Translations under genes and position numbers: made by a program
Notes under the pieces: generated by a model
Databases searched by the model: none
What the model was told of the DNA's origin: nothing
Seen by the model: only the letters and a program-made list of their open reading frames with translations
In this document: in pieces, positions 1-7,318 of the stretch
Numbering within the stretch: position 1 is the stretch's first letter
Layout: each line of letters starts with the position of its first letter
Assembly (NCBI GenBank): GCA_913049525.1
Contig: CAJWYZ010000061.1
Location: 1-7,905 of the forward strand
Direction of reading: 5' to 3'
Length of the DNA: 7,905 nt
Source: an uncultured Fidelibacterota bacterium
GTDB lineage: Bacteria; Fidelibacterota; Marinisomatia; SCGC-AAA003-L08; D37C17

Positions 1-34
1 AAAAAAGCCCCCAACTTATTGGGGGCTTTTATTT
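1..34 (-). terminator. Intrinsic terminator of the motor operon
   Basis: Positions 3-14 and 19-30 form a perfect 12-bp inverted repeat with a GC-rich core (GCCCCCAA pairing with TTGGGGGC) and a 4-base loop. Read on the minus strand, the hairpin ends in six T (positions 6-1), the classic Rho-independent layout, 18 bases after the stop codon of the FliG-like gene. The plus strand also has a T-rich tail (27-34), so it may stop transcription from both sides. It fixes the 3' end of the seven-gene minus-strand operon. Confidence 0.93.
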
Positions 35-48
35 AATTTAACAACCTA

Positions 49-987
49 TTACTCTTCTACTTCAGGTGCTGCTAATACATCATCAATGTTTATATCACCA
101 CTATCAATTTTTTTCTGAAGTTGATCCTTGATTTTGCCTTTTGATTCATCGATTTCCCGTTTTGATACATTGTCATCGGCGGTTTTTGGTGTGAACATGG
201 CTGCCTTCTTTCCTGGAAGATAGCCCTGTAATTTGTCAACGGTTTCAGTTTCACTATCTGCCAATGCAGTTGCCATAATTTCCAGATCAATTTCGGGGTC
301 ACCCCAAAAAGTAGCTGCAATTCCATCTGGCATAGCAACAATGTCATCAAATAAGAGGAAGTATTTTTTCACTTCTTGGAGTAATCCTGGGTTATCTAAT
401 TTCATTTGTTCTAAATATTTTTTTGCATCATCTTCCGGCATTTTACCTAACATTTCTGAAACAGATTTACCCCCACCTCGTGAAAACTTAACTGATTCAG
501 GAAGAAAAGCACATTTCTTTTTAAGCTCATTAGCAGTATGAATGATTGCTTCAAGGGGAATATCATTTAATTCGCCAGTTTGTAAAACAATTTTATTTTG
601 TTTTTCAACATTAACCTTTGACAAAAAAATCATCCTTTTTTCATTGTCAATTTGCTCTAATGCCAATGCAATTACTTTGGGTTTTTCCGGTGACAATAAT
701 ACGAAGAGCTGTTCATCATCTAAAGCTTCAAGAAATTCAAACATTTTTTCACTACTAGTTTGATCTTTATACTTGTCCTTGGAAAGCATTTTGAAATAAT
801 AATCTTCCAATACTTCCTTCTTTACAGCTGTTGGAACGGTATTTTTTAAGGTTTTGGCATGATCCCATATTTTATAAAACTCAGCTTCAGGAATATCTTT
901 AAACATATTAAGGGAAAGAGAATCTCCTAAAATATCAAAAAGGATAGCAACCTTATCATAACCCGTTAATTCTTCTTTAGTTTTCAT
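49..987 (-). CDS. FliG-like rotor (motor switch) protein, divergent
   Basis: This 312-residue protein has the length and three-part layout of flagellar FliG, the rotor protein on which MotA pushes. The N-terminal domain begins with LTGYDKVAILFDILGD (7-22), matching the FliG opening in which a conserved LTG-x-x-KAAILL-x-x-LG is expected. The middle domain (about 80-155) has SPEKPKVIALALEQID (99-114) where FliG has its EHPQ-x-IALIL-x-x-LD motif, so EHPQ is altered to EKPK. A Gly-rich hinge (RGGGKSVSEML, 170-180) leads to the C-terminal domain: DNPGLLQEVKKYFLLFDDIV (198-217) corresponds to the DPELA...MFVFEDI segment, followed by an acidic and basic helix bundle (230-300) where FliG meets MotA. 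The start lies 3 bases after the FliF-like stop, with a GGAGAAG Shine-Dalgarno inside that gene's end, suggesting coupled translation. It should bind the tail of the FliF-like protein at the inner-membrane cytoplasmic face. The family call is strong. A true flagellar role is doubtful because no other flagellar genes are nearby. Confidence 0.86.
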   Translation of the reverse strand: MKTKEELTGYDKVAILFDILGDSLSLNMFKDIPEAEFYKIWDHAKTLKNTVPTAVKKEVLEDYYFKMLSKDKYKDQTSSEKMFEFLEALDDEQLFVLLSPEKPKVIALALEQIDNEKRMIFLSKVNVEKQNKIVLQTGELNDIPLEAIIHTANELKKKCAFLPESVKFSRGGGKSVSEMLGKMPEDDAKKYLEQMKLDNPGLLQEVKKYFLLFDDIVAMPDGIAATFWGDPEIDLEIMATALADSETETVDKLQGYLPGKKAAMFTPKTADDNVSKREIDESKGKIKDQLQKKIDSGDINIDDVLAAPEVEE

Positions 988-990
988 AAA

Positions 991-2313
991 TTATTCTTCT
1001 CCAGCCTCTTCATCATCTTCATCATCTTTATTTGGATTATCCTCCAGCCATTCTTTAATGAGGGCAGATGCGCCCTCTTTTTCCCCTATGGTAAGCGACA
1101 CAGCAGTCTGCCTTAATGAGCGGAGCTCAGAACGCAGACCATCTTCATCAGGGCGAGGAGGAGGTGCAGCAGGTTCAGGGGATTCTTCTGGTTCTGCCTC
1201 GCCAGTTTCATCATCATCAGAATCATTTTCTCCTTCTTTCTTCTTATCCTTTTTTTTGTCTTTAGCTTTTTCCTTTTCTTTACTCTTTGGTTTTAAATAG
1301 ATTGTTTTCGGCTTTTTATTTCTGGCAGCCAAAAAGGTTACAACTATGAGGGCAATGATAAGTAAGATAAAAATAACAGAACCCATTATTCCCGATTTCC
1401 CCCCCCCCAGTTGCATACCCATTAGTGATTCGTCTTCCTTACCACCACCAGCTTGTTGTTTTACAATACTGAGAGTTTCATGAATTATTACAGAATCAGA
1501 TTTAATTTTACTTTCCATGACTCGTTCGAGCCGTTTTTCAGTATTGATAAATTTGAGAGAATCTTGTGATTTTTGTAATTTTTCAGCTACAATCATTTGA
1601 ACAAAACGGATTGAATCTTGCTTTGCCAGTTGTTGTATTCTCCGATGATTCAAAGATCTTTCTTCATCTCTTTCGGTGGAAACTTCATCAATTTGGCGTT
1701 CTAAATCCTCTAATATCTTATTTTGATTTGCCAAATCAGCAGCTCGTTTGTCAGCCTCTAATTTTTCAATTGCCTTTTCTAATTCATAGAGCTTAGTATT
1801 TTTGTTGTTAGCCTGAAATTGAAACTGCATAGCTTCAATTTTAATGCAATCCCCACAGTCTTTGGTTTGAGGAATTATCTTTTCTACTAAGTATTTAATT
1901 TCTTGTTTTATAGAACCTTTATTATGCAATTCTTCATCTATTCCAATAGTAACTTCAACACGTCCGATATCTAAATCATTTCCACTACGGTTTTGGTTTC
2001 TGATATTATTGGATGGCTGTGAACCTTGGTTTGATGGCAAAGTAGGCAGCCCAGGGATATATCCAACAGAAGGGCCGGCTCCAGTTTGAGGTGTAGCAGA
2101 TTTTTTCAGGGTGCCACCAACTGACGAAAATTCAATACTAACAATTACTAAAAACTTCTCCTGCCCCAACATTCGAGACACTGCAGCAGAAACCTTTTGC
2201 TGATAAGAATTTTCTATGGCAATTTTCTGTGAAAGAAGACCTGCTTGCTGGTTCCATAGAAATGCGCAGAGGGCTATTAATAAAAGATATTTACGGCCAA
2301 ATTTAATGGTCAT
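991..2313 (-). CDS. Minimal FliF-like ring/anchor protein with periplasmic coiled coil
   Basis: This 440-residue membrane protein resembles only the C-terminal half of FliF (usually about 550 residues). A basic, short hydrophobic N-terminus (4-20) looks like a signal peptide or first membrane anchor. Residues 37-63 (YQQKVSAAVSRMLGQEKFLV...) and 118-166 (RVEVTIGIDEEL... CGDCIKIEAMQF) match the two halves of FliF RBM3, separated by a Gly/Pro/Asn-rich loop (65-113) where FliF carries its beta-collar insertion. RBM1 and RBM2 are absent. A charged heptad-like stretch (172-285) predicts a long periplasmic coiled coil. A membrane helix (309-329) is followed by RNKKPK, placing the C-terminus in the cytoplasm. 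A Lys-rich, then acidic, then Pro-rich linker (332-391) leads to EKEGASALIKEWLEDN (411-426), which matches the FliG-binding tail of FliF (DPR-x-x-A-x-x-IR-x-W). AGGAG at 2321-2325, 7 bases upstream, supports the start. It presumably anchors the FliG-like protein encoded next. Confidence 0.8.
   Translation of the reverse strand: MTIKFGRKYLLLIALCAFLWNQQAGLLSQKIAIENSYQQKVSAAVSRMLGQEKFLVIVSIEFSSVGGTLKKSATPQTGAGPSVGYIPGLPTLPSNQGSQPSNNIRNQNRSGNDLDIGRVEVTIGIDEELHNKGSIKQEIKYLVEKIIPQTKDCGDCIKIEAMQFQFQANNKNTKLYELEKAIEKLEADKRAADLANQNKILEDLERQIDEVSTERDEERSLNHRRIQQLAKQDSIRFVQMIVAEKLQKSQDSLKFINTEKRLERVMESKIKSDSVIIHETLSIVKQQAGGGKEDESLMGMQLGGGKSGIMGSVIFILLIIALIVVTFLAARNKKPKTIYLKPKSKEKEKAKDKKKDKKKEGENDSDDDETGEAEPEESPEPAAPPPRPDEDGLRSELRSLRQTAVSLTIGEKEGASALIKEWLEDNPNKDDEDDEEAGEE
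1399..1408. repeat. Ten-base C/G homopolymer inside the FliF-like gene
   Basis: A run of ten C (ten G on the coding strand) encodes the end of Leu302 and Gly303-305, just before the membrane helix. Loss of one base gives a stop four codons after the run (GGA AAT CGG GAA TAA). Gain of one base gives a stop about 28 codons later. Either change would remove the membrane segment and the FliG-binding tail. This is the kind of tract that can slip and act as an on/off switch, though it could also just be a Gly-rich linker or be mis-sized by sequencing. Confidence 0.9.
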
Positions 2314-2380
2314 GGTTTTGCTCCTGTTTAAGCATAAGTAAATTTAATACATTCAAATTGTTGTATGAAAGATTGTACAA
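2314..2380 (-). promoter_or_regulatory. Motor operon's only long intercistronic gap, with small dyad
   Basis: This 67-base gap between motB and the FliF-like gene is the only sizeable spacer in an otherwise overlapping or tightly packed operon. It holds a TTGTACAA palindrome (2373-2380) directly after the motB stop, and TTGTA/TACAA arms (2361-2365, 2376-2380) that could form a weak hairpin. It ends in a good Shine-Dalgarno, AGGAG at 2321-2325. It could tune stator versus rotor expression through RNA processing or an internal promoter, but no convincing -35/-10 pair was seen and the dyad is AT-rich, so only the spacer and the ribosome site are well supported. Confidence 0.35.
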
Positions 2381-3376
2381 TTATTTTCCGGCATTTTCGT
2401 ATCTTTCAAGTCCATCTACAAATTTTTGCTGTGTAAAAATAATTTTAATACGCCGGTTTTTTGCACGAAGTTCTTTTGTTCTATTTAGGGAATCAATCAC
2501 AGAATCCATGCTGATTTCATCAAATAAGGGATTCCCATCTTTATCCATGTCAACTCCTGTATATTCAGGCTTACCACCCCTTCCCTCTACAATTTCTACA
2601 TTTTCGCCTCGCGGTTTTTGTACTGCTCCCCGCCTCATGTTTTCCCAGCTCATATCGGCAGGCCAGCGTTCAGCATAGCCATGAGAAACTAACCTTGAAG
2701 GATTTACTCCTTTATCTATAAGGTAGCTTACTACCGCAGAGGCTCTGGCAGATGACAATTCCCAGTTTGTTGGGTACATTTTTGCCACATTCCTAGTAGG
2801 CTTCACATTATCCGTATGTCCTTCTACAATAATTTGCCGATTATCAGATGGAACAGTTAAAAAACTATCTACAGCTGCATCTAAAAATCCTTTCAATTTT
2901 TCTTTAATGGCAGCCTCTCCAGCATCAAAACAGACATTCCCGTTTAATTCAACAACCGTGCCCCGGGGGTCTTTCATTTCTACTTTTGCCTCAGAAGAAT
3001 CTAATTCCATTTCTTCTATAATTTCAGCTAAATCTTCATGCATTTCATAAGATTTCGGAGGTGGCTCTTGCTGTGCCTTTAAATCCTGAATGAGGCTGTC
3101 CATATATTCTTCAATAGGCTTATCATCTATTTCTGTCACCCCTTGTTCTTTTAATTCCTGAGCTTGTTTTTCAATTTCTTCAATTTCTTCCTCTTGTTTA
3201 ACTGCCCCTGCTTCATCCCCACCCCCTTCAACAAGTCCAGCAGGATCTGAACTTGACAAAGAAAACAAAATCACAAAAAATGCAAAGAGCAGGGTGAACA
3301 TATCTGCCATGGTGCCAAAATATCCAGGCAAACCTGCACCGTTTCCATCACATAATGGACAAACCTCGTCAGCCAT
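2381..3376 (-). CDS. motB: MotB/PomB stator protein with interrupted OmpA-like domain
   Basis: This 331-residue protein is the peptidoglycan-anchored half of an ion-driven stator. A short cytoplasmic N-terminus with a CPLC pair (6-9) leads to GLPGYFGTMADMFTLLFAFF (15-34). That stretch aligns with the PomB/MotB membrane segment and places the ion-binding aspartate at Asp25. The signature that follows (VILFSLSSSDP) is also PomB-like. A charged linker (50-135) precedes the OmpA-like peptidoglycan-binding domain (about 139-314), with EGHTDN (185-190, Asp189) and NWELSSARA (204-212, Arg211). Normally GYGE-x-RP is followed closely by the N-x-x-x-x-RA-x-NRR motif. Here about 58 residues (240-297) separate GYAERWP from NRTKELRAKNRRIKI. 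That insert contains a canonical 12-position Ca-loop pattern, D276-x-D-x-D-G...E287. The gene follows motA by 5 bases with a weak ribosome site (GATGAAG). Its partner is the adjacent MotA. The coupling ion cannot be settled from sequence, though the PomB-like N-terminus leans towards sodium. Confidence 0.93.
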   Translation of the reverse strand: MADEVCPLCDGNGAGLPGYFGTMADMFTLLFAFFVILFSLSSSDPAGLVEGGGDEAGAVKQEEEIEEIEKQAQELKEQGVTEIDDKPIEEYMDSLIQDLKAQQEPPPKSYEMHEDLAEIIEEMELDSSEAKVEMKDPRGTVVELNGNVCFDAGEAAIKEKLKGFLDAAVDSFLTVPSDNRQIIVEGHTDNVKPTRNVAKMYPTNWELSSARASAVVSYLIDKGVNPSRLVSHGYAERWPADMSWENMRRGAVQKPRGENVEIVEGRGGKPEYTGVDMDKDGNPLFDEISMDSVIDSLNRTKELRAKNRRIKIIFTQQKFVDGLERYENAGK

Positions 3377-3381
3377 TTATA

Positions 3382-4194
3382 TTAATCTTCATCCGTGAAT
3401 CTGTCTTTTCTTGCCAGGAATGCATTTAGCCGTTCTTGTACCATAATAGGGTGAACCTTATCATATAGTAACATAGCTGCTTCTAAATGCAGGGCACTTT
3501 CTACCTTTTTACCTTCATTAATATATTTTAAATGTTCTGAAAAGGGCAGAAAAAAGAAGAAGGCAAAAAGTGCTCCGTAAAGCGTAGTAATGAGTGCGAT
3601 TGCCATATTTGCGATAAGTGAAGCCATTGGGTCAGTACCGGGGGCCGCAGGCATGGTCATACCAGCTAACATGAAAATCAACCCAAATAATGTTCCGATC
3701 ATACCAAAAGATGGGGCATATTCTCCTAATTTAGCTATAGCATTTGCTGCTTTTATTTCACGCAATGCACGATATTGTTCTTTATTTTCCATAATGGTAC
3801 GGATATCATCTTTTGCCAAACCATCACTAATCATTCGACAGGCATCTTTTATACTACTAAGACGAAAAGGCATGTGTTCTGGAGTTTCATCCGCAGCTTT
3901 TGACAGCTCCCCTTTTCGTGCTAATTCAGCAAGACCAACATAGTCCTGTACCACATCTTTTAAAGTAAACCCCTGTGCACCCAAAAATACTTTTGGAAAT
4001 CCAGCAAAAGCTGCAATTACATCCTCTAAAGGGTACGCAATGCAGGTTGCGGCAATCGCCCCACCAACAACAATTGCTAAGCTAATTCCGTCCCAGAGAG
4101 AACCCATACCACCTGTCGACGCAGATCCTAGGAAGGCTGCGGTAAGTAAAATTCCAAGACCCATCACAAAACCAATGACTGCACCTAAATTCAT
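3382..4194 (-). CDS. motA: MotA/PomA stator ion-channel protein
   Basis: This 270-residue inner-membrane protein has the flagellar MotA/PomA layout: membrane helices at about 4-24, 33-54, 159-180 and 191-216, with a cytoplasmic loop of about 100 residues between helices 2 and 3. Diagnostic segments are IVVGGAIAAT (41-50), LARKGEL (91-97, the basic patch that meets FliG in PomA), APSFGMIGTLFGLI (160-173, with the channel Pro161) and MAIALITTLYGA (197-208), followed by FLP (Pro217). Threonines at 168 and 203-204 match polar positions of sodium-type PomA, which is suggestive but not decisive because some proton MotAs share them. The loop and length exclude the shorter ExbB/TolQ layout. The start overlaps the stop of the upstream barrel gene (ATGA, 4191-4194) and has AGGAGA at 4202-4207, so translation is coupled. 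With MotB it should form the stator that turns the FliG-like rotor encoded in the same operon. Confidence 0.94.
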   Translation of the reverse strand: MNLGAVIGFVMGLGILLTAAFLGSASTGGMGSLWDGISLAIVVGGAIAATCIAYPLEDVIAAFAGFPKVFLGAQGFTLKDVVQDYVGLAELARKGELSKAADETPEHMPFRLSSIKDACRMISDGLAKDDIRTIMENKEQYRALREIKAANAIAKLGEYAPSFGMIGTLFGLIFMLAGMTMPAAPGTDPMASLIANMAIALITTLYGALFAFFFFLPFSEHLKYINEGKKVESALHLEAAMLLYDKVHPIMVQERLNAFLARKDRFTDED

Positions 4195-5546
4195 TTAATA
4201 TTCTCCTGTATTTTTCCTATTTCTATGGGTGTGAGGCGGTTTTCATCAGATGCCTGCAACACATCATAAATTTCAGTAAATTCCGGATCTAATTGCAGAG
4301 CCACATTCCAGTTCAGTGTTGCCCGGCGGTTATCGCCCAGTTTGTAATAAATAGAACCACGCCTGCCATAAGCAATAGCTAAGTTGGGATTTAATTCAAT
4401 GGCAAAATTCACTTCGGACAAAGCATTTCTATATTCTTCATCATAGAAAAACCTCAGCGATCTGGATAAATGTCTCATTGCTTTATTTTGGCTAGATTGG
4501 CTCACCTGTTCACGTAGTAGATTTTTTCTGGTGGAGTCAACTAAAACCACTTCATTATGCTGAAGCATATTATTATAATCATTTAAGTTATCAATCATAT
4601 TATTACTTACCTTGATGGAGTCCCGCAAAGTTTCTACAACATCTGTGCAGATTAGATCATAATACAAAATAGAAGAATCCGTTTCGCCATAAATACCATA
4701 CCCTAATTGTTCATCTAACCCTAATTCTTCTATTTCATCTGCATCAAAAATTCTAGGTACATTTATACCCATTCCAAAAGTTATGGATGGTGCATCGCCT
4801 CTTAGTGCGGACCAATCATCAGTACGGTCTTCAGTAGCAAAATCACCAAAACTCTCGAAATGAGTAATGCCTAAATTAATATGAGTTGACTTTAATATGG
4901 GAATAGAAACACCTATATTTAATCCTTTACCATCAAATTCAGTCATAAAATTTGCTCCACCATTTTTTTTCAAGAAGGGAGTAGTAAAATTAAACCCTAA
5001 AAAAACCCCGATATTTTGCTTTTGATTTGAAACATACAGATGTGAATCTTCATTAATTTTTCCAGAGCCAAAACCCAAATAGGTTGCAATGGCGTAATCA
5101 TCAAAATCTTTTACACTGCTGAGAACTGCAAAAAGAGACACTCCTTTAGTGTCTAATCCATCATCATCTGCAGAATCACTGCCCTGCCTGAAAATAATAT
5201 CCTGAATTCCTGCACCTACATTCACATCTCCATATTTAAACATATTTTTTTGAAGATGAAAACCAAGTTCACCCGAATTAGCGGGATTTACCGGCCTCAC
5301 AAAAGATAGTCCATAAAGGTAGCCGGATTTTCCCATAGTGTTCACAGAAAATGCAGAACTGCTTTGGCTTGAAGATAAATATTCAGAGGATACATTAACT
5401 GCTAAGAGATTTTTATACATATTGATATCCATATTGGGAACACGCATCATATTTCCAGGCCTGGAAAATGCAACACGTGAATTTGCGTCTATTACTCCAG
5501 CCAATAAAATAAATGTAAGTGGAATTAAAAACTTTGCTCTGGGCAT
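4191..5546 (-). CDS. Outer-membrane beta-barrel protein with C-terminal TPR pair
   Basis: This 451-residue exported protein is not a family I can name with certainty. A signal peptide (1-22, hydrophobic 6-18) is followed by about 240 residues (24-265) of alternating, aromatic/Gly-rich beta-strand sequence. Examples are YLYGLSFVRPV, GELGFHLQK and GLNIGVSIPIL, typical of an outer-membrane barrel of the PorV/PorQ or YjbH-like kind. The EFDGKGLNIGV stretch (203-213) recalls the repeated DGK-x-x-N-x-G strands of such proteins. A helical linker (about 300-350) joins two TPR motifs (about 355-389 and 390-424, the second with GRRGSIYYKLGDNRRA), which would face the periplasm. It overlaps motA by 4 bases and follows the TPR gene by 3 bases, so it belongs to the motor operon. 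There is no strong Shine-Dalgarno; the start is set by the signal peptide. It may give the motor an outer-membrane contact, which is inference. Confidence 0.75.
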   Translation of the reverse strand: MPRAKFLIPLTFILLAGVIDANSRVAFSRPGNMMRVPNMDINMYKNLLAVNVSSEYLSSSQSSSAFSVNTMGKSGYLYGLSFVRPVNPANSGELGFHLQKNMFKYGDVNVGAGIQDIIFRQGSDSADDDGLDTKGVSLFAVLSSVKDFDDYAIATYLGFGSGKINEDSHLYVSNQKQNIGVFLGFNFTTPFLKKNGGANFMTEFDGKGLNIGVSIPILKSTHINLGITHFESFGDFATEDRTDDWSALRGDAPSITFGMGINVPRIFDADEIEELGLDEQLGYGIYGETDSSILYYDLICTDVVETLRDSIKVSNNMIDNLNDYNNMLQHNEVVLVDSTRKNLLREQVSQSSQNKAMRHLSRSLRFFYDEEYRNALSEVNFAIELNPNLAIAYGRRGSIYYKLGDNRRATLNWNVALQLDPEFTEIYDVLQASDENRLTPIEIGKIQENIK

Positions 5547-5549
5547 TCT

Positions 5550-6182
5550 TTAATGTTGGTTTAATATCCGCGTTTTGATTTTAGCCGACATGAAATAATC
5601 GCTTTCAGGATAAAAGGAAATAAGTTTTATATAATTACTTTTCGCGTTTTTGATATCTCCTATTGATTCATAAATCATTGCTATTAAGAGATAAAGTTCA
5701 TCGCTTTCGTTTTGTTTGAGTAATGAAAGTACTTGGGCTTTGGCTTTGTCAAGGTAACCAGTCCGGTAGTAGGCCACCGCAAGTAAATAGTTTAAACTTT
5801 CTCTATTTCGTTTTGAGAGCATGCTCAAATCTCTTTGGTAAAGAATCTCAATTACATGTTGATAATTATTATTAAAATAAGATTTTTCTGCTGCTAATTT
5901 AATTTGGTTAATACTAATTTCAACTGAGTCACTTATCAATTGGCTAGATTTTTTCGACAGCAATGTTTTTTTCACAGGGGGTATAAATGGATCTGTAATG
6001 ACGGCATTTATTTTTGCACGAGTCTTTTTTTCTTTAGATGATAACGGATGGGGAGCCTCTTTGACATTCTGAATTTCAGATGGAGTAATTACAACGCCCA
6101 AATCCCATAGCACCTCATTTGTAAATCCCATTGAATAGAATAATCCAATGCTAACGCACAAAACAAATTTGTTAACCGTCAT
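5550..6182 (-). CDS. Small exported TPR protein
   Basis: This is a 210-residue protein when started at the ATG at 6180-6182. That start is preferred over an upstream in-frame ATG (6227, 15 residues longer) because it has TGGAGT at 6187-6192, 5 bases upstream. It also begins a clean signal sequence (MTVNKFVLCVSIGLFYSMGF), while the longer form would bury it. The gene overlaps the lipoprotein gene by 11 bases. After the export signal comes a basic and Pro-rich linker (about 40-80), then at least three TPR-like helix pairs (95-122, 127-160, 161-194; for example LLAVAYYRTGYLDKAKAQV and LLIAMIYESIGDIKNAKSNY), ending with a YPES turn. It probably acts as a periplasmic scaffold within the operon product set. 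No more specific family was recognised. Membrane anchoring instead of cleavage is possible. Confidence 0.78.
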   Translation of the reverse strand: MTVNKFVLCVSIGLFYSMGFTNEVLWDLGVVITPSEIQNVKEAPHPLSSKEKKTRAKINAVITDPFIPPVKKTLLSKKSSQLISDSVEISINQIKLAAEKSYFNNNYQHVIEILYQRDLSMLSKRNRESLNYLLAVAYYRTGYLDKAKAQVLSLLKQNESDELYLLIAMIYESIGDIKNAKSNYIKLISFYPESDYFMSAKIKTRILNQH

Positions 6183-7038
6183 ACTGACTCCAGTCAATAT
6201 CATAACTATATCCAATGAATGAACCAAAAGATTTTGGGATTACCATTTGGAAGTTCCCAACAGCGTGCGGCAAAATACTATTATCGGATGAAATACCAGT
6301 TTCGAAGGTATTTGTCACCCCATTTATAAATGCTGTCAAAGCTTTTGAGTCTCCCTGCCAGTTTGTTCTAAAGGTGAAAATAATTTTTGAAAAATCTGCT
6401 CGTTTATTCCCCACATTTTTCACTTCACCTGATAGTACCGTATTCCCAGAGCCATCCTTTTCCTCTGTAATATCTCCCACCAACACCAAATGAGCAGACA
6501 TATTTGTCACTCGTTTTTGTATGAGGTTTACTCCAGAAGGGTCTGGTACTCCAGGGACCTTAGATTCGGTGTCAAAATTGCCGTAGGCACCTACTTGATT
6601 TACTACCCGAATGATTGTATTTCGATCAATAATTAGCTGTCCTATTAAGGTTTCTATTTTCATTACATCTTGATCCTGATATACAATTTTACCAAAAATA
6701 GAACTTCCGTTATTGAGAACAACTTCTTTGTTATAAATAGCAAATGGGTTTGCCCAAACTTGGGTTTGAGCTTCCAACTTACTTAAATTTTCATGCTGAT
6801 AGTCCAGTTCAGCCTTCATTTTCTTGATATCCATACGAAGATCTTCAATAATTTCAGGCATATTTTTTTCTACAGCTGAATCCTGCAAGAGATCATAATT
6901 GTTTCCATTTTCGCCATTATTCAAATCAGGAGAATTATTTATATCAGGAGAGGTCTCAATTTGGTCGTTTTTACCTCCACAAGAAAACATAAATAGAGTG
7001 CAAAAAATTATTATTATATAGAGTTTAATGTTATTCAT
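6172..7038 (-). CDS. Predicted lipoprotein with coiled coil and FxLYD-like domain
   Basis: This 288-residue protein is the first gene of the motor operon. A hydrophobic signal (5-19) ends in FMFSC with Cys20 and then GG, a relaxed lipobox; the lack of Asp at position +2 is compatible with outer-membrane sorting. An Asn/Asp-rich linker (23-50) and a charged helical segment (about 60-92, IIEDLRMDIKKMKAELDY) suggest a coiled coil. Residues 104-147 (KEVVLNNGSSIFGKIVYQ... IIDRNTIIRVV) form a small beta-rich module of the type V-x-L-x-NG-x-x-I-x-G-x-I. The C-terminus (about 183-284), with VLSGEVKNVGNKRADFSKIIFTF, resembles the FxLYD fold, which has a beta sandwich starting G-x-V-x-N. The start at the ATG (7036-7038) has no obvious Shine-Dalgarno. 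A motor link comes only from operon position, and no function was recognised. Confidence 0.72.
   Translation of the reverse strand: MNNIKLYIIIIFCTLFMFSCGGKNDQIETSPDINNSPDLNNGENGNNYDLLQDSAVEKNMPEIIEDLRMDIKKMKAELDYQHENLSKLEAQTQVWANPFAIYNKEVVLNNGSSIFGKIVYQDQDVMKIETLIGQLIIDRNTIIRVVNQVGAYGNFDTESKVPGVPDPSGVNLIQKRVTNMSAHLVLVGDITEEKDGSGNTVLSGEVKNVGNKRADFSKIIFTFRTNWQGDSKALTAFINGVTNTFETGISSDNSILPHAVGNFQMVIPKSFGSFIGYSYDIDWSQYDG
6187..6192 (-). promoter_or_regulatory. Ribosome binding site deciding the TPR gene start
   Basis: TGGAGT on the minus strand sits 5 bases before the ATG at 6180-6182 and inside the end of the lipoprotein gene. It favours this start over the in-frame ATG 15 codons earlier and implies translational coupling. 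Confidence 0.7.
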
Positions 7039-7142
7039 AATTGAAAAGATTATTTATAATATTTTGGAGTTTTTTTTTTTAAAGGAATCCCTGTGATGCC
7101 AAGAATTTAAATCAATACAACATATTGTTATCTTGAAGGAAA

Positions 7143-7171
7143 AATATACCTTATAATGTGGATATCAGCAA
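7143..7171 (-). promoter_or_regulatory. Candidate promoter of the motor operon
   Basis: On the minus strand TTGCTG (7166-7171) and TATATT (7143-7148) are 17 bases apart, the spacing of a primary-sigma promoter. The -10 matches 5 of 6 and the -35 only 3 of 6. It would give a leader of nearly 100 bases before the lipoprotein gene. In DNA this AT-rich, chance matches are frequent, and the consensus in this lineage is unknown. Confidence 0.3.
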
Positions 7172-7262
7172 AATGATTTATTCCCCAATAGTATATTTTT
7201 TTGGGCAAAAAAAGGACTCAATTATTTTAAATTAATTATTGAAATTAAAAGTTAATCATTTT

Positions 7263-7291
7263 TTGTGAAATAATGGGAATAATTGTAAATT
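7263..7291 (+). promoter_or_regulatory. Candidate promoter of panD-panB
   Basis: TTGTGA (7263-7268) and TAAATT (7286-7291) are 17 bases apart and would start transcription around 7298, about 20 bases before panD. Both hexamers match the usual consensus only partly, so this is a weak candidate. Confidence 0.25.
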
Positions 7292-7304
7292 TACTTCATT
7301 AGTT

Positions 7305-7311
7305 GAGAGGG
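7305..7311 (+). promoter_or_regulatory. Ribosome binding site for panD
   Basis: GAGAGGG lies 7 bases before the TTG start of panD and supports that start over the ATG four codons downstream (7331). Confidence 0.65.
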
Positions 7312-7318
7312 AAATAGC

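What the first reader, a model, noticed from the sequence alone, without database searches (positions are those of the whole stretch)
49..4194. Flagellar-type rotor and stator set without a flagellum: a possible stand-alone envelope motor
MotA, MotB, a FliF-like anchor and a FliG-like rotor are co-transcribed, in that order, between a terminator and envelope-protein genes. These are the torque-producing parts of a flagellar motor, but no FliM/FliN, export gate, rod, hook, filament or chemotaxis gene lies in the operon, and the operon ends at a strong terminator. The FliF and FliG relatives are divergent. I infer an ion-driven rotary device with a non-flagellar output. I am not aware of a named system with this gene set, but could not search.
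Basis: partly seen in the sequence, partly recalled or inferred. Interest (0 to 1): 0.93.

Follow-up and report, generated by a model that had tools for sequence, protein, structure and literature searches.

The report
Flagellar motor core without a flagellum
In most sampled genomes of one bacterial phylum, relatives of the torque-making parts of the flagellar motor sit in one operon with predicted outer-membrane proteins and no flagellum-building genes, and together they likely form a separate ion-driven rotary machine that would move something at the cell surface.

Summary
Confirmed. A seven-gene minus-strand operon (7038 to 49) encodes an envelope protein, a TPR protein, a predicted outer-membrane barrel with TPR, MotA, MotB, a shortened FliF and a divergent FliG. 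The own genome (92% complete) gave no FlhA, FliM/FliN or rod/hook hit, and this is its only FliG hit. The operon is old in Neomarinimicrobiota: of 80 named loci, 60 show the full run barrel-MotA-MotB-FliF-FliG, one has FliF split, 19 end with the contig, none contradicts it. Barrel, FliF-like and FliG hits co-occur in 138 of 245 phylum genomes, 105 of them without FlhA and FliM/N hits; 33 of 42 FlhA-positive genomes also have the barrel. Motor FliG (21 rows) and flagellar FliG (12) form separate groups at 100/100. The FliF relative keeps RBM3 and the FliG-binding tail, lacks RBM1/RBM2 and gains a long predicted helix; the FliM-binding EHPQ motif is absent in 66 of 66 motor FliGs. Best reading: a stand-alone rotary motor acting on the outer membrane. 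Its output is unknown; surface movement is favoured over powering type IX secretion, because clades without motor hits keep SprA and cargo. Ten open-access literature searches found no description.

The parts
49..987 (-). FliG-like rotor protein, 312 aa (FliG_N, FliG_M, FliG_C); reads EKPK where flagellar FliG has the EHPQ FliM-binding motif, and lacks the segment joining FliG_N to FliG_M
991..2313 (-). FliF-like rotor protein, 440 aa: export signal or anchor, RBM3, long predicted helix, TM, FliG-binding tail; no RBM1 or RBM2
1816..2232 (-). RBM3 ring-building domain of the FliF-like protein (about residues 28-166)
1453..1800 (-). predicted long helix of the FliF-like protein (residues 172-287, about 17 nm if straight), presumed periplasmic
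   Evidence: AF2; block pLDDT 95-98 for residues 181-250, falling to 60 at 271-280
1042..1146 (-). C-terminal helices of the FliF-like protein (390-424), aligned with the FliG-binding end of FliF
2381..3376 (-). MotB-like stator subunit: plug TM with the conserved Asp, OmpA-type peptidoglycan-binding domain, insertions and a C-terminal extension in this genus
3382..4194 (-). MotA-like stator subunit of the flagellar kind by sequence
4191..5546 (-). predicted 12-stranded outer-membrane barrel with a 78-residue helix and a C-terminal TPR, 451 aa
5550..6227 (-). TPR protein, 225 aa, probably exported; one or two copies in relatives, none found in some
6172..7038 (-). envelope protein, 288 aa, with a Cys after its hydrophobic N terminus (lipoprotein-like; such a pattern in 24 of 69 relatives' rows) and a conserved C-terminal domain
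3..30 (-). terminator-like stem after the FliG-like gene
   Evidence: and sequence
7039..7318 (.). intergenic region shared with the divergent panD gene; presumably holds the operon promoter
   Evidence: weak consensus matches only

Best explanation
A seven-gene operon encodes a MotA/MotB stator pair, FliF- and FliG-related rotor proteins and three predicted envelope proteins, which likely work as a stand-alone ion-driven rotary motor that would turn a periplasmic shaft reaching toward the outer membrane instead of a flagellum. Shown by sequence: the homologies, the conserved gene order, the absence of FlhA, FliM/N and rod/hook hits in the own genome, the missing RBM1/RBM2 and the missing EHPQ motif. 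Inferred: ions flow through peptidoglycan-anchored MotAB; MotA pushes a ring of the FliG-like protein, as in the flagellum; the FliG ring is held by the cytoplasmic tail of the FliF-like protein; its TM and long helix carry the torque through the periplasm to an RBM3 ring, which would engage the helix and TPR of the outer-membrane barrel and the other envelope proteins. Without FliM/FliN the motor probably has no CheY-type switch. The most likely output is movement of outer-membrane or surface structures, such as gliding or adhesin movement.
For: Gene order: FliG, FliF, MotB, MotA genes adjacent in 21 of 21 loci (the window and 20 chosen genomes, 18 families), barrel gene beside them in 20 of 21. 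In 80 named loci, 60 have the exact run barrel-MotA-MotB-FliF-FliG, one (L152) has FliF split in two frames, 19 end with the contig (one of these, L119, was first misread by my ORF picker and does encode MotA), 0 contradict it. The 80 are not all independent: L105 and L106 look like copies, L165 and L168 come from one genome. Independence from the flagellum: 105 of 138 genomes with barrel, FliF-like and FliG hits lack FlhA and FliM/N hits; 33 of 42 FlhA-positive genomes have a strong barrel hit (there FliF and FliG hits can be the flagellar ones, so the barrel is the marker); no rod/hook hit in 23 of 23 genomes of the own family. Motor FliG (21) and flagellar FliG (12) are two sides of one branch, 100/100. 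FliF-like. EHPQ in 11 of 12 flagellar (the twelfth ENPQ), 0 of 66 motor FliG. Torque-helix basic residues: K264-equivalent kept in 64 of 66, R281-equivalent basic in 66 of 66 (E. coli numbering recalled). MotB channel Asp in 80 of 81 c2 rows; the last is another OmpA-type protein (78 by pattern, 2 by eye). RBM3-to-TM distance: median 165 residues, 45-210, in 80 of 83 rows. Selection, own genus: dN/dS FliG 0.066-0.069 and MotA 0.064-0.134 (2 of 3 pairs each, the third saturated), MotB 0.10-0.19.
Against: No experiment. The acidic pair of the flagellar torque helix is mostly gone in motor FliG (P at the D288 column in 49 of 66), and in the window's own genus the K264-equivalent is A (2 of 66 rows), so the FliG-MotA contact must differ. 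FliF-like, barrel, TPR and envelope genes are under weaker constraint than FliG (dN/dS 0.19-0.30, 0.16, 0.36, 0.27). Whether the FliF N terminus is a cleaved signal peptide or an anchor is unresolved: 71 of 75 scored rows carry a cleavage-like motif, the window's own row does not, and 8 of 83 rows were not scored. The AF2 model of FliF-like is weak overall (pLDDT 68.5, pTM 0.33), and Foldseek has no hit under E 0.001. No complex was modelled.
Confidence: 0.72

Rival explanations
1. [quoted passage not shown]
For: SprA model hits in 233 of 245 phylum genomes (221 over cut-off) and 94 of 94 high-quality ones; GldM in only 2 of 245; 9 T9SS sorting-domain hits in the own genome and hits in 50 of 50 genomes tested. 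In Bacteroidota GldLM is modelled to pass torque through the periplasm to the T9SS (PMC8986121, passages).
Against: Clades without barrel, FliF-like or clear FliG hits keep SprA and cargo: g63 with 38-74 sorting domains (7 genomes tested), g28 with 23 and 44 (2 tested; weak FliG_C hits only), reduced g29 genomes with 2-4 (12 tested). I saw no T9SS gene in the operon. Caution: the sorting-domain model also rings in one control outside the Bacteroidota, Deinobacterium, and none of the 14 named controls rings for SprA or GldM.
Confidence: 0.2
2. The operon serves an ordinary flagellum as a second motor or a replacement for its FliF/FliG/MotAB.
For: All four core proteins are flagellar-motor relatives; 33 of 42 FlhA-positive genomes have the barrel gene too.
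Against: Own genome without FlhA, FliM/N or rod/hook hits; 105 of 138 full-set genomes lack FlhA and FliM/N hits; five genomes read carry both a flagellar and a motor FliG; RBM1/RBM2 and EHPQ missing.
Confidence: 0.03
3. An envelope-maintenance machine like Tol-Pal: MotAB energises a trans-envelope link that pulls or constricts the outer membrane, with FliG/FliF as an adaptor that does not rotate fully.
For: MotB with a peptidoglycan-binding domain, a predicted outer-membrane barrel and TPR proteins in one operon.
Against: The genome has a separate 209-aa MotA_ExbB protein of TolQ/ExbB size; Tol-Pal needs no FliG or FliF (recalled); the motor hits are absent in whole clades, so it is not a general envelope function.
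Confidence: 0.12
4. A decaying remnant of a lost flagellum, kept by chance.
For: FliF is shortened and FliG divergent; FliF-like and the small genes are under weaker constraint than FliG.
Against: dN/dS 0.066-0.069 for FliG; fixed order in every locus that can be judged; five genomes keep it beside a flagellar FliG.
Confidence: 0.02

Closest known systems
Bacterial flagellar motor (MotAB, FliF MS-ring, FliG of the C-ring)
   Same: MotA/MotB of the flagellar kind by sequence, FliG with all three domains, FliF RBM3 and FliG-binding tail, probably the same torque principle
   Different: No RBM1/RBM2, no EHPQ motif, no FliM/FliN, FlhA or rod/hook hit in this genome; FliF gains a long predicted helix; the operon includes a predicted outer-membrane barrel, TPR and envelope proteins
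GldL/GldM motor of T9SS and gliding (Bacteroidota)
   Same: Ion-driven inner-membrane motor with a periplasm-spanning part aimed at outer-membrane proteins (inferred here)
   Different: GldLM resemble but are not homologous to MotAB (PMC13104615, passages) and involve no FliF/FliG; GldM in 2 of 245 genomes only
AglRQS-Glt gliding motor (Myxococcota)
   Same: MotAB-like pump in a trans-envelope, flagellum-free system (PMC13104615, passages)
   Different: That review's text names no FliG or FliF (0 occurrences); Agl and Glt proteins were not compared here
RBM rings of injectisomes (PrgK, EscJ) and SpoIIIAG
Zorya ZorAB
   Same: MotB-like subunit resembles ZorB models (best E 2.1e-14)
   Different: MotA matches flagellar MotA far better than ZorA (ZorA E 0.076); no ZorC or ZorD match among the seven proteins at E 0.1

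Membership tests
Bacterial flagellum / flagellar motor | FliG with N, M and C domains | tested here: met
   all three above cut-off; below NCBI's fliG equivalog cut-off (70.5 against 226.7 bits)
Bacterial flagellum / flagellar motor | MotAB stator of the flagellar kind | tested here: met
   by sequence only, structural traits not modelled
Bacterial flagellum / flagellar motor | FliF MS-ring with RBM1, RBM2 and RBM3 | tested here: not met
   only RBM3 and tail align
Bacterial flagellum / flagellar motor | FliM/FliN switch ring and the FliM-binding EHPQ motif in FliG | tested here: not met
   no FliM/N hit in own genome; EHPQ 0 of 66 motor FliG
Bacterial flagellum / flagellar motor | Type III export gate (FlhA) | tested here: not met
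   no hit in own genome; genome 91.7% complete
Bacterial flagellum / flagellar motor | Rod and hook proteins | tested here: not met
   no PF00460 hit in own genome and 22 family members
Bacterial flagellum / flagellar motor | Flagellin filament | not tested
   no flagellin search was run
T9SS / gliding motor (GldLM) | GldM | tested here: not met
   own genome 0; 2 of 245
T9SS / gliding motor (GldLM) | GldL | not tested
   no GldL model was searched
T9SS / gliding motor (GldLM) | SprA translocon and sorting-domain cargo in the genome | tested here: met
   in the genome, not in the operon
Non-flagellar type III secretion (injectisome) | FlhA/SctV export gate | tested here: not met
   no PF00771 hit in own genome
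Zorya | ZorA plus ZorC/ZorD or ZorE | tested here: not met
   MotA of 270 aa scores E 0.076 with ZorA (model of 699); no ZorC or ZorD; a weak ZorE hit (E 0.0012) to the TPR protein
AglRQS-Glt gliding machine | AglQ/AglS and Glt proteins | not tested
   only sub-threshold TPR hits such as GltE (E 0.043) to the barrel's TPR in L073

The most novel reading that the evidence does not exclude
This is a new kind of trans-envelope rotary machine: a FliG ring turned by MotAB that spins an export-free, stalked FliF and thereby drives outer-membrane barrels, the first FliF/FliG rotor known to work outside a flagellum, inherited since early in a whole phylum and kept beside flagella by some members.
Probability: 0.5. 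Interest if true: 0.97.

Novelty: categorically new. Interest (0 to 1): 0.92.

Why it matters
FliG and FliF are known as parts of flagella (recalled). If their torque-making core runs alone, then the engine can be separated from the export gate and the filament, which bears on how flagella arose and on what a minimal rotary motor needs. The phylum (Neomarinimicrobiota, also called Marinimicrobia or SAR406; abundance in the ocean interior is recalled) is mostly known from metagenomes; many members would have a surface machine that no annotation shows. It also exposes an open question: how this phylum energises SprA-based secretion with almost no GldM.

Tried and rejected
Considered and rejected: a flagellum elsewhere in the genome; decay; Zorya. 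T9SS energiser kept as a rival, lowered because clades without motor hits keep SprA and cargo.

Led nowhere: ten literature searches (open-access PMC, no preprints) listed no paper describing this gene set in this phylum; titles and abstract starts were read for the listings. The KSB1 paper PMC9012183 reports ordinary flagellar genes. Papers seen as passages only: PMC12505986, PMC12635249, PMC9012183, PMC13104615, PMC8986121. A PDB sequence search with the barrel family gave 67 matches (60 shown), nearly all through the TPR and none to a barrel. One search used an arbitrary stretch of L174 and told nothing. The promoter scan gives more hits than shuffles (43 against a mean of 29.1) but no full consensus site.

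Limits. The scan outside the phylum is weak: one search found 134 relatives of the barrel protein and kept the best 80, titled Neomarinimicrobiota, Marinimicrobia, FCB group bacterium or just bacterium; the other 54 were not seen, so presence in other phyla is open. In the cross-table 'FliG' is any FliG_C match and the FliF-like profile can also touch canonical FliF, so in FlhA-positive genomes the barrel is the only clean marker. Thresholds differ: barrel E 1e-10, the others 1e-3. Three barrel matches (G021, G024, G153; E 8e-20 to 1e-15) are left out of the 'strong' counts (33 of 42; 131 barrel-positive genomes without FlhA). Rows come from two fetches and include near-copies. The FliG tree has no outgroup, so whether motor FliG arose from a flagellar one is not settled. 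The R297 column is badly aligned and not used.
Full report
What is there. The window (G000:C61, 7,905 bases, a contig of its own) holds seven closely packed genes on the minus strand, 7038 to 49, and panD and the start of panB on the plus strand. In order of transcription: a 288-aa envelope protein, a 225-aa TPR protein, a 451-aa barrel-TPR protein, MotA, MotB, a FliF-like protein and a FliG-like protein, then a terminator-like stem at 3-30. The phylum is Neomarinimicrobiota: homologues are so named, and named contigs of that phylum have the lengths of contigs in the sampled genomes (for example DDYE01000011.1, 142,056, and G218:C13).

Topology (inferred). In 71 of 75 scored rows the N terminus has a signal-peptidase-like motif before Gln, and its hydrophobic run averages 14 residues, against 20-22 for the N-terminal TM of the 12 canonical FliF. 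If it is cleaved, RBM3 sits at the far end of a stalk of up to about 17 nm pointing to the outer membrane. The window's own row lacks the strict motif, so this is likely, not shown.

Distribution. In 20 genomes chosen across 18 families, plus the window, MotA-MotB-FliF-FliG are adjacent in 21 of 21; the barrel gene lies beside them in 20 of 21 (in G184 it is about 0.5 Mb away). The first gene was found in 20 of 21 and the small TPR gene in 18 of 21. In 80 named loci, 60 have the complete run, one has FliF split, 19 end with the contig, none contradicts it. In the 78 of these with a barrel-MotA pair called, the small TPR gene precedes the barrel in 61. Across 245 phylum genomes: barrel 167, FliF-like 145, any FliG_C 172, FlhA 46 (42 over cut-off), FliM/N 40. 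Barrel, FliF-like and FliG together: 138, of which 105 lack FlhA and FliM/N hits. Of 42 FlhA-positive genomes 33 have a strong barrel hit, one a weak one and 8 none. 61 genomes have none of the three hits. Many genomes are incomplete, so some absences are gaps.

A separate lineage. A tree of 21 motor and 12 flagellar FliG splits them at 100/100, with a joining branch of 1.87 + 0.53 changes per column; in G184, G194, G200, G205 and G218 one FliG falls on each side. EHPQ (FliM binding, recalled) is in 11 of 12 flagellar and 0 of 66 motor FliG, and of a 20-residue test stretch in the FliG_N-FliG_M segment 1-5 residues are left in all 66. In the own genus dN/dS is 0.066-0.069 for FliG and 0.064-0.134 for MotA (two of three pairs each; the third is saturated), 0.10-0.19 for MotB, 0.19-0.30 for FliF-like, and 0.16, 0.36 and 0.27 for barrel, TPR and envelope genes from one pair each.

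How it likely works. MotAB is anchored to peptidoglycan and passes ions; MotA drives a FliG ring through basic residues that are mostly kept (K264-equivalent 64 of 66, R281-equivalent basic in 66 of 66). The acidic partners have mostly gone, so the contact is remodelled, most of all in the window's genus. The FliF tail holds FliG. With no RBM1/RBM2 there is nothing to hold an export gate or rod; the helix and RBM3 take the torque outward. Apart from the residue counts, this paragraph is inference from homology and predicted structure.

Output. T9SS: SprA in 233 of 245 genomes and GldM in 2 of 245 make the motor an attractive energiser, but clades without motor hits (g63, g28, g29) keep SprA and 38-74, 23-44 and 2-4 cargo domains in the genomes tested. 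Of the MotA_ExbB family these clades show only proteins of TolQ/ExbB size (201-221 aa): one in most, two in G033, none in G039. So secretion does not seem to need this motor there. Gliding or adhesin movement fits a dispensable, envelope-linked motor better, with no direct evidence.

Novelty. Ten searches of an open-access library listed no account of this gene set (see Tried and rejected). The mBio 2025 survey of MotAB (PMC12505986, passages) ties flagellar-type stators to flagellar motility; the present stators are flagellar-like by sequence, in genomes without FlhA, FliM/N or, where searched, rod/hook hits. Preprints and subscription papers were not searchable.

Noticed in passing
phylum-wide, 245 genomes; own genome G000: SprA, the T9SS translocon, is nearly universal (233 of 245) while GldM is almost absent (2 of 245): the energiser of type IX secretion in this phylum is unknown. 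GldL was not searched.
   Followed up: partly
G166:C9 and G103:C43: The only two GldM matches; G103's lies at a contig start. They may be contamination or late transfer.
   Followed up: no
window 49-987 and L062:6713-7651: In the window's genus the FliG torque helix has lost the K264-equivalent (A) and its acidic pair, yet FliG is 98.4% identical between the two genomes with dN/dS 0.069: a remodelled FliG-MotA contact.
   Followed up: partly
window 2381-3376: MotB of this genus carries insertions and a C-terminal extension not seen in the other families aligned.
   Followed up: no
G003:C1:144453-144836 and others: More than 20 of the 52 genomes searched have a further MotA-like protein of about 270-300 aa outside this operon, flagellated or not.
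   Followed up: no
G033, G034, G035: FliG_C matches just under E 1e-3 in genus g28, which has no barrel or FliF-like hit: a more divergent motor, or chance.
   Followed up: no
G180:C34: A canonical-looking FliG (1.8e-35) and a weak rod/hook hit on the same contig in a 94% complete genome without FlhA hit: perhaps a partial flagellar cluster.
   Followed up: no
L073:1824-2954: In five loci a release-factor-like or ribosome-hibernation-factor-like gene (c8) lies just upstream of the operon.
   Followed up: partly
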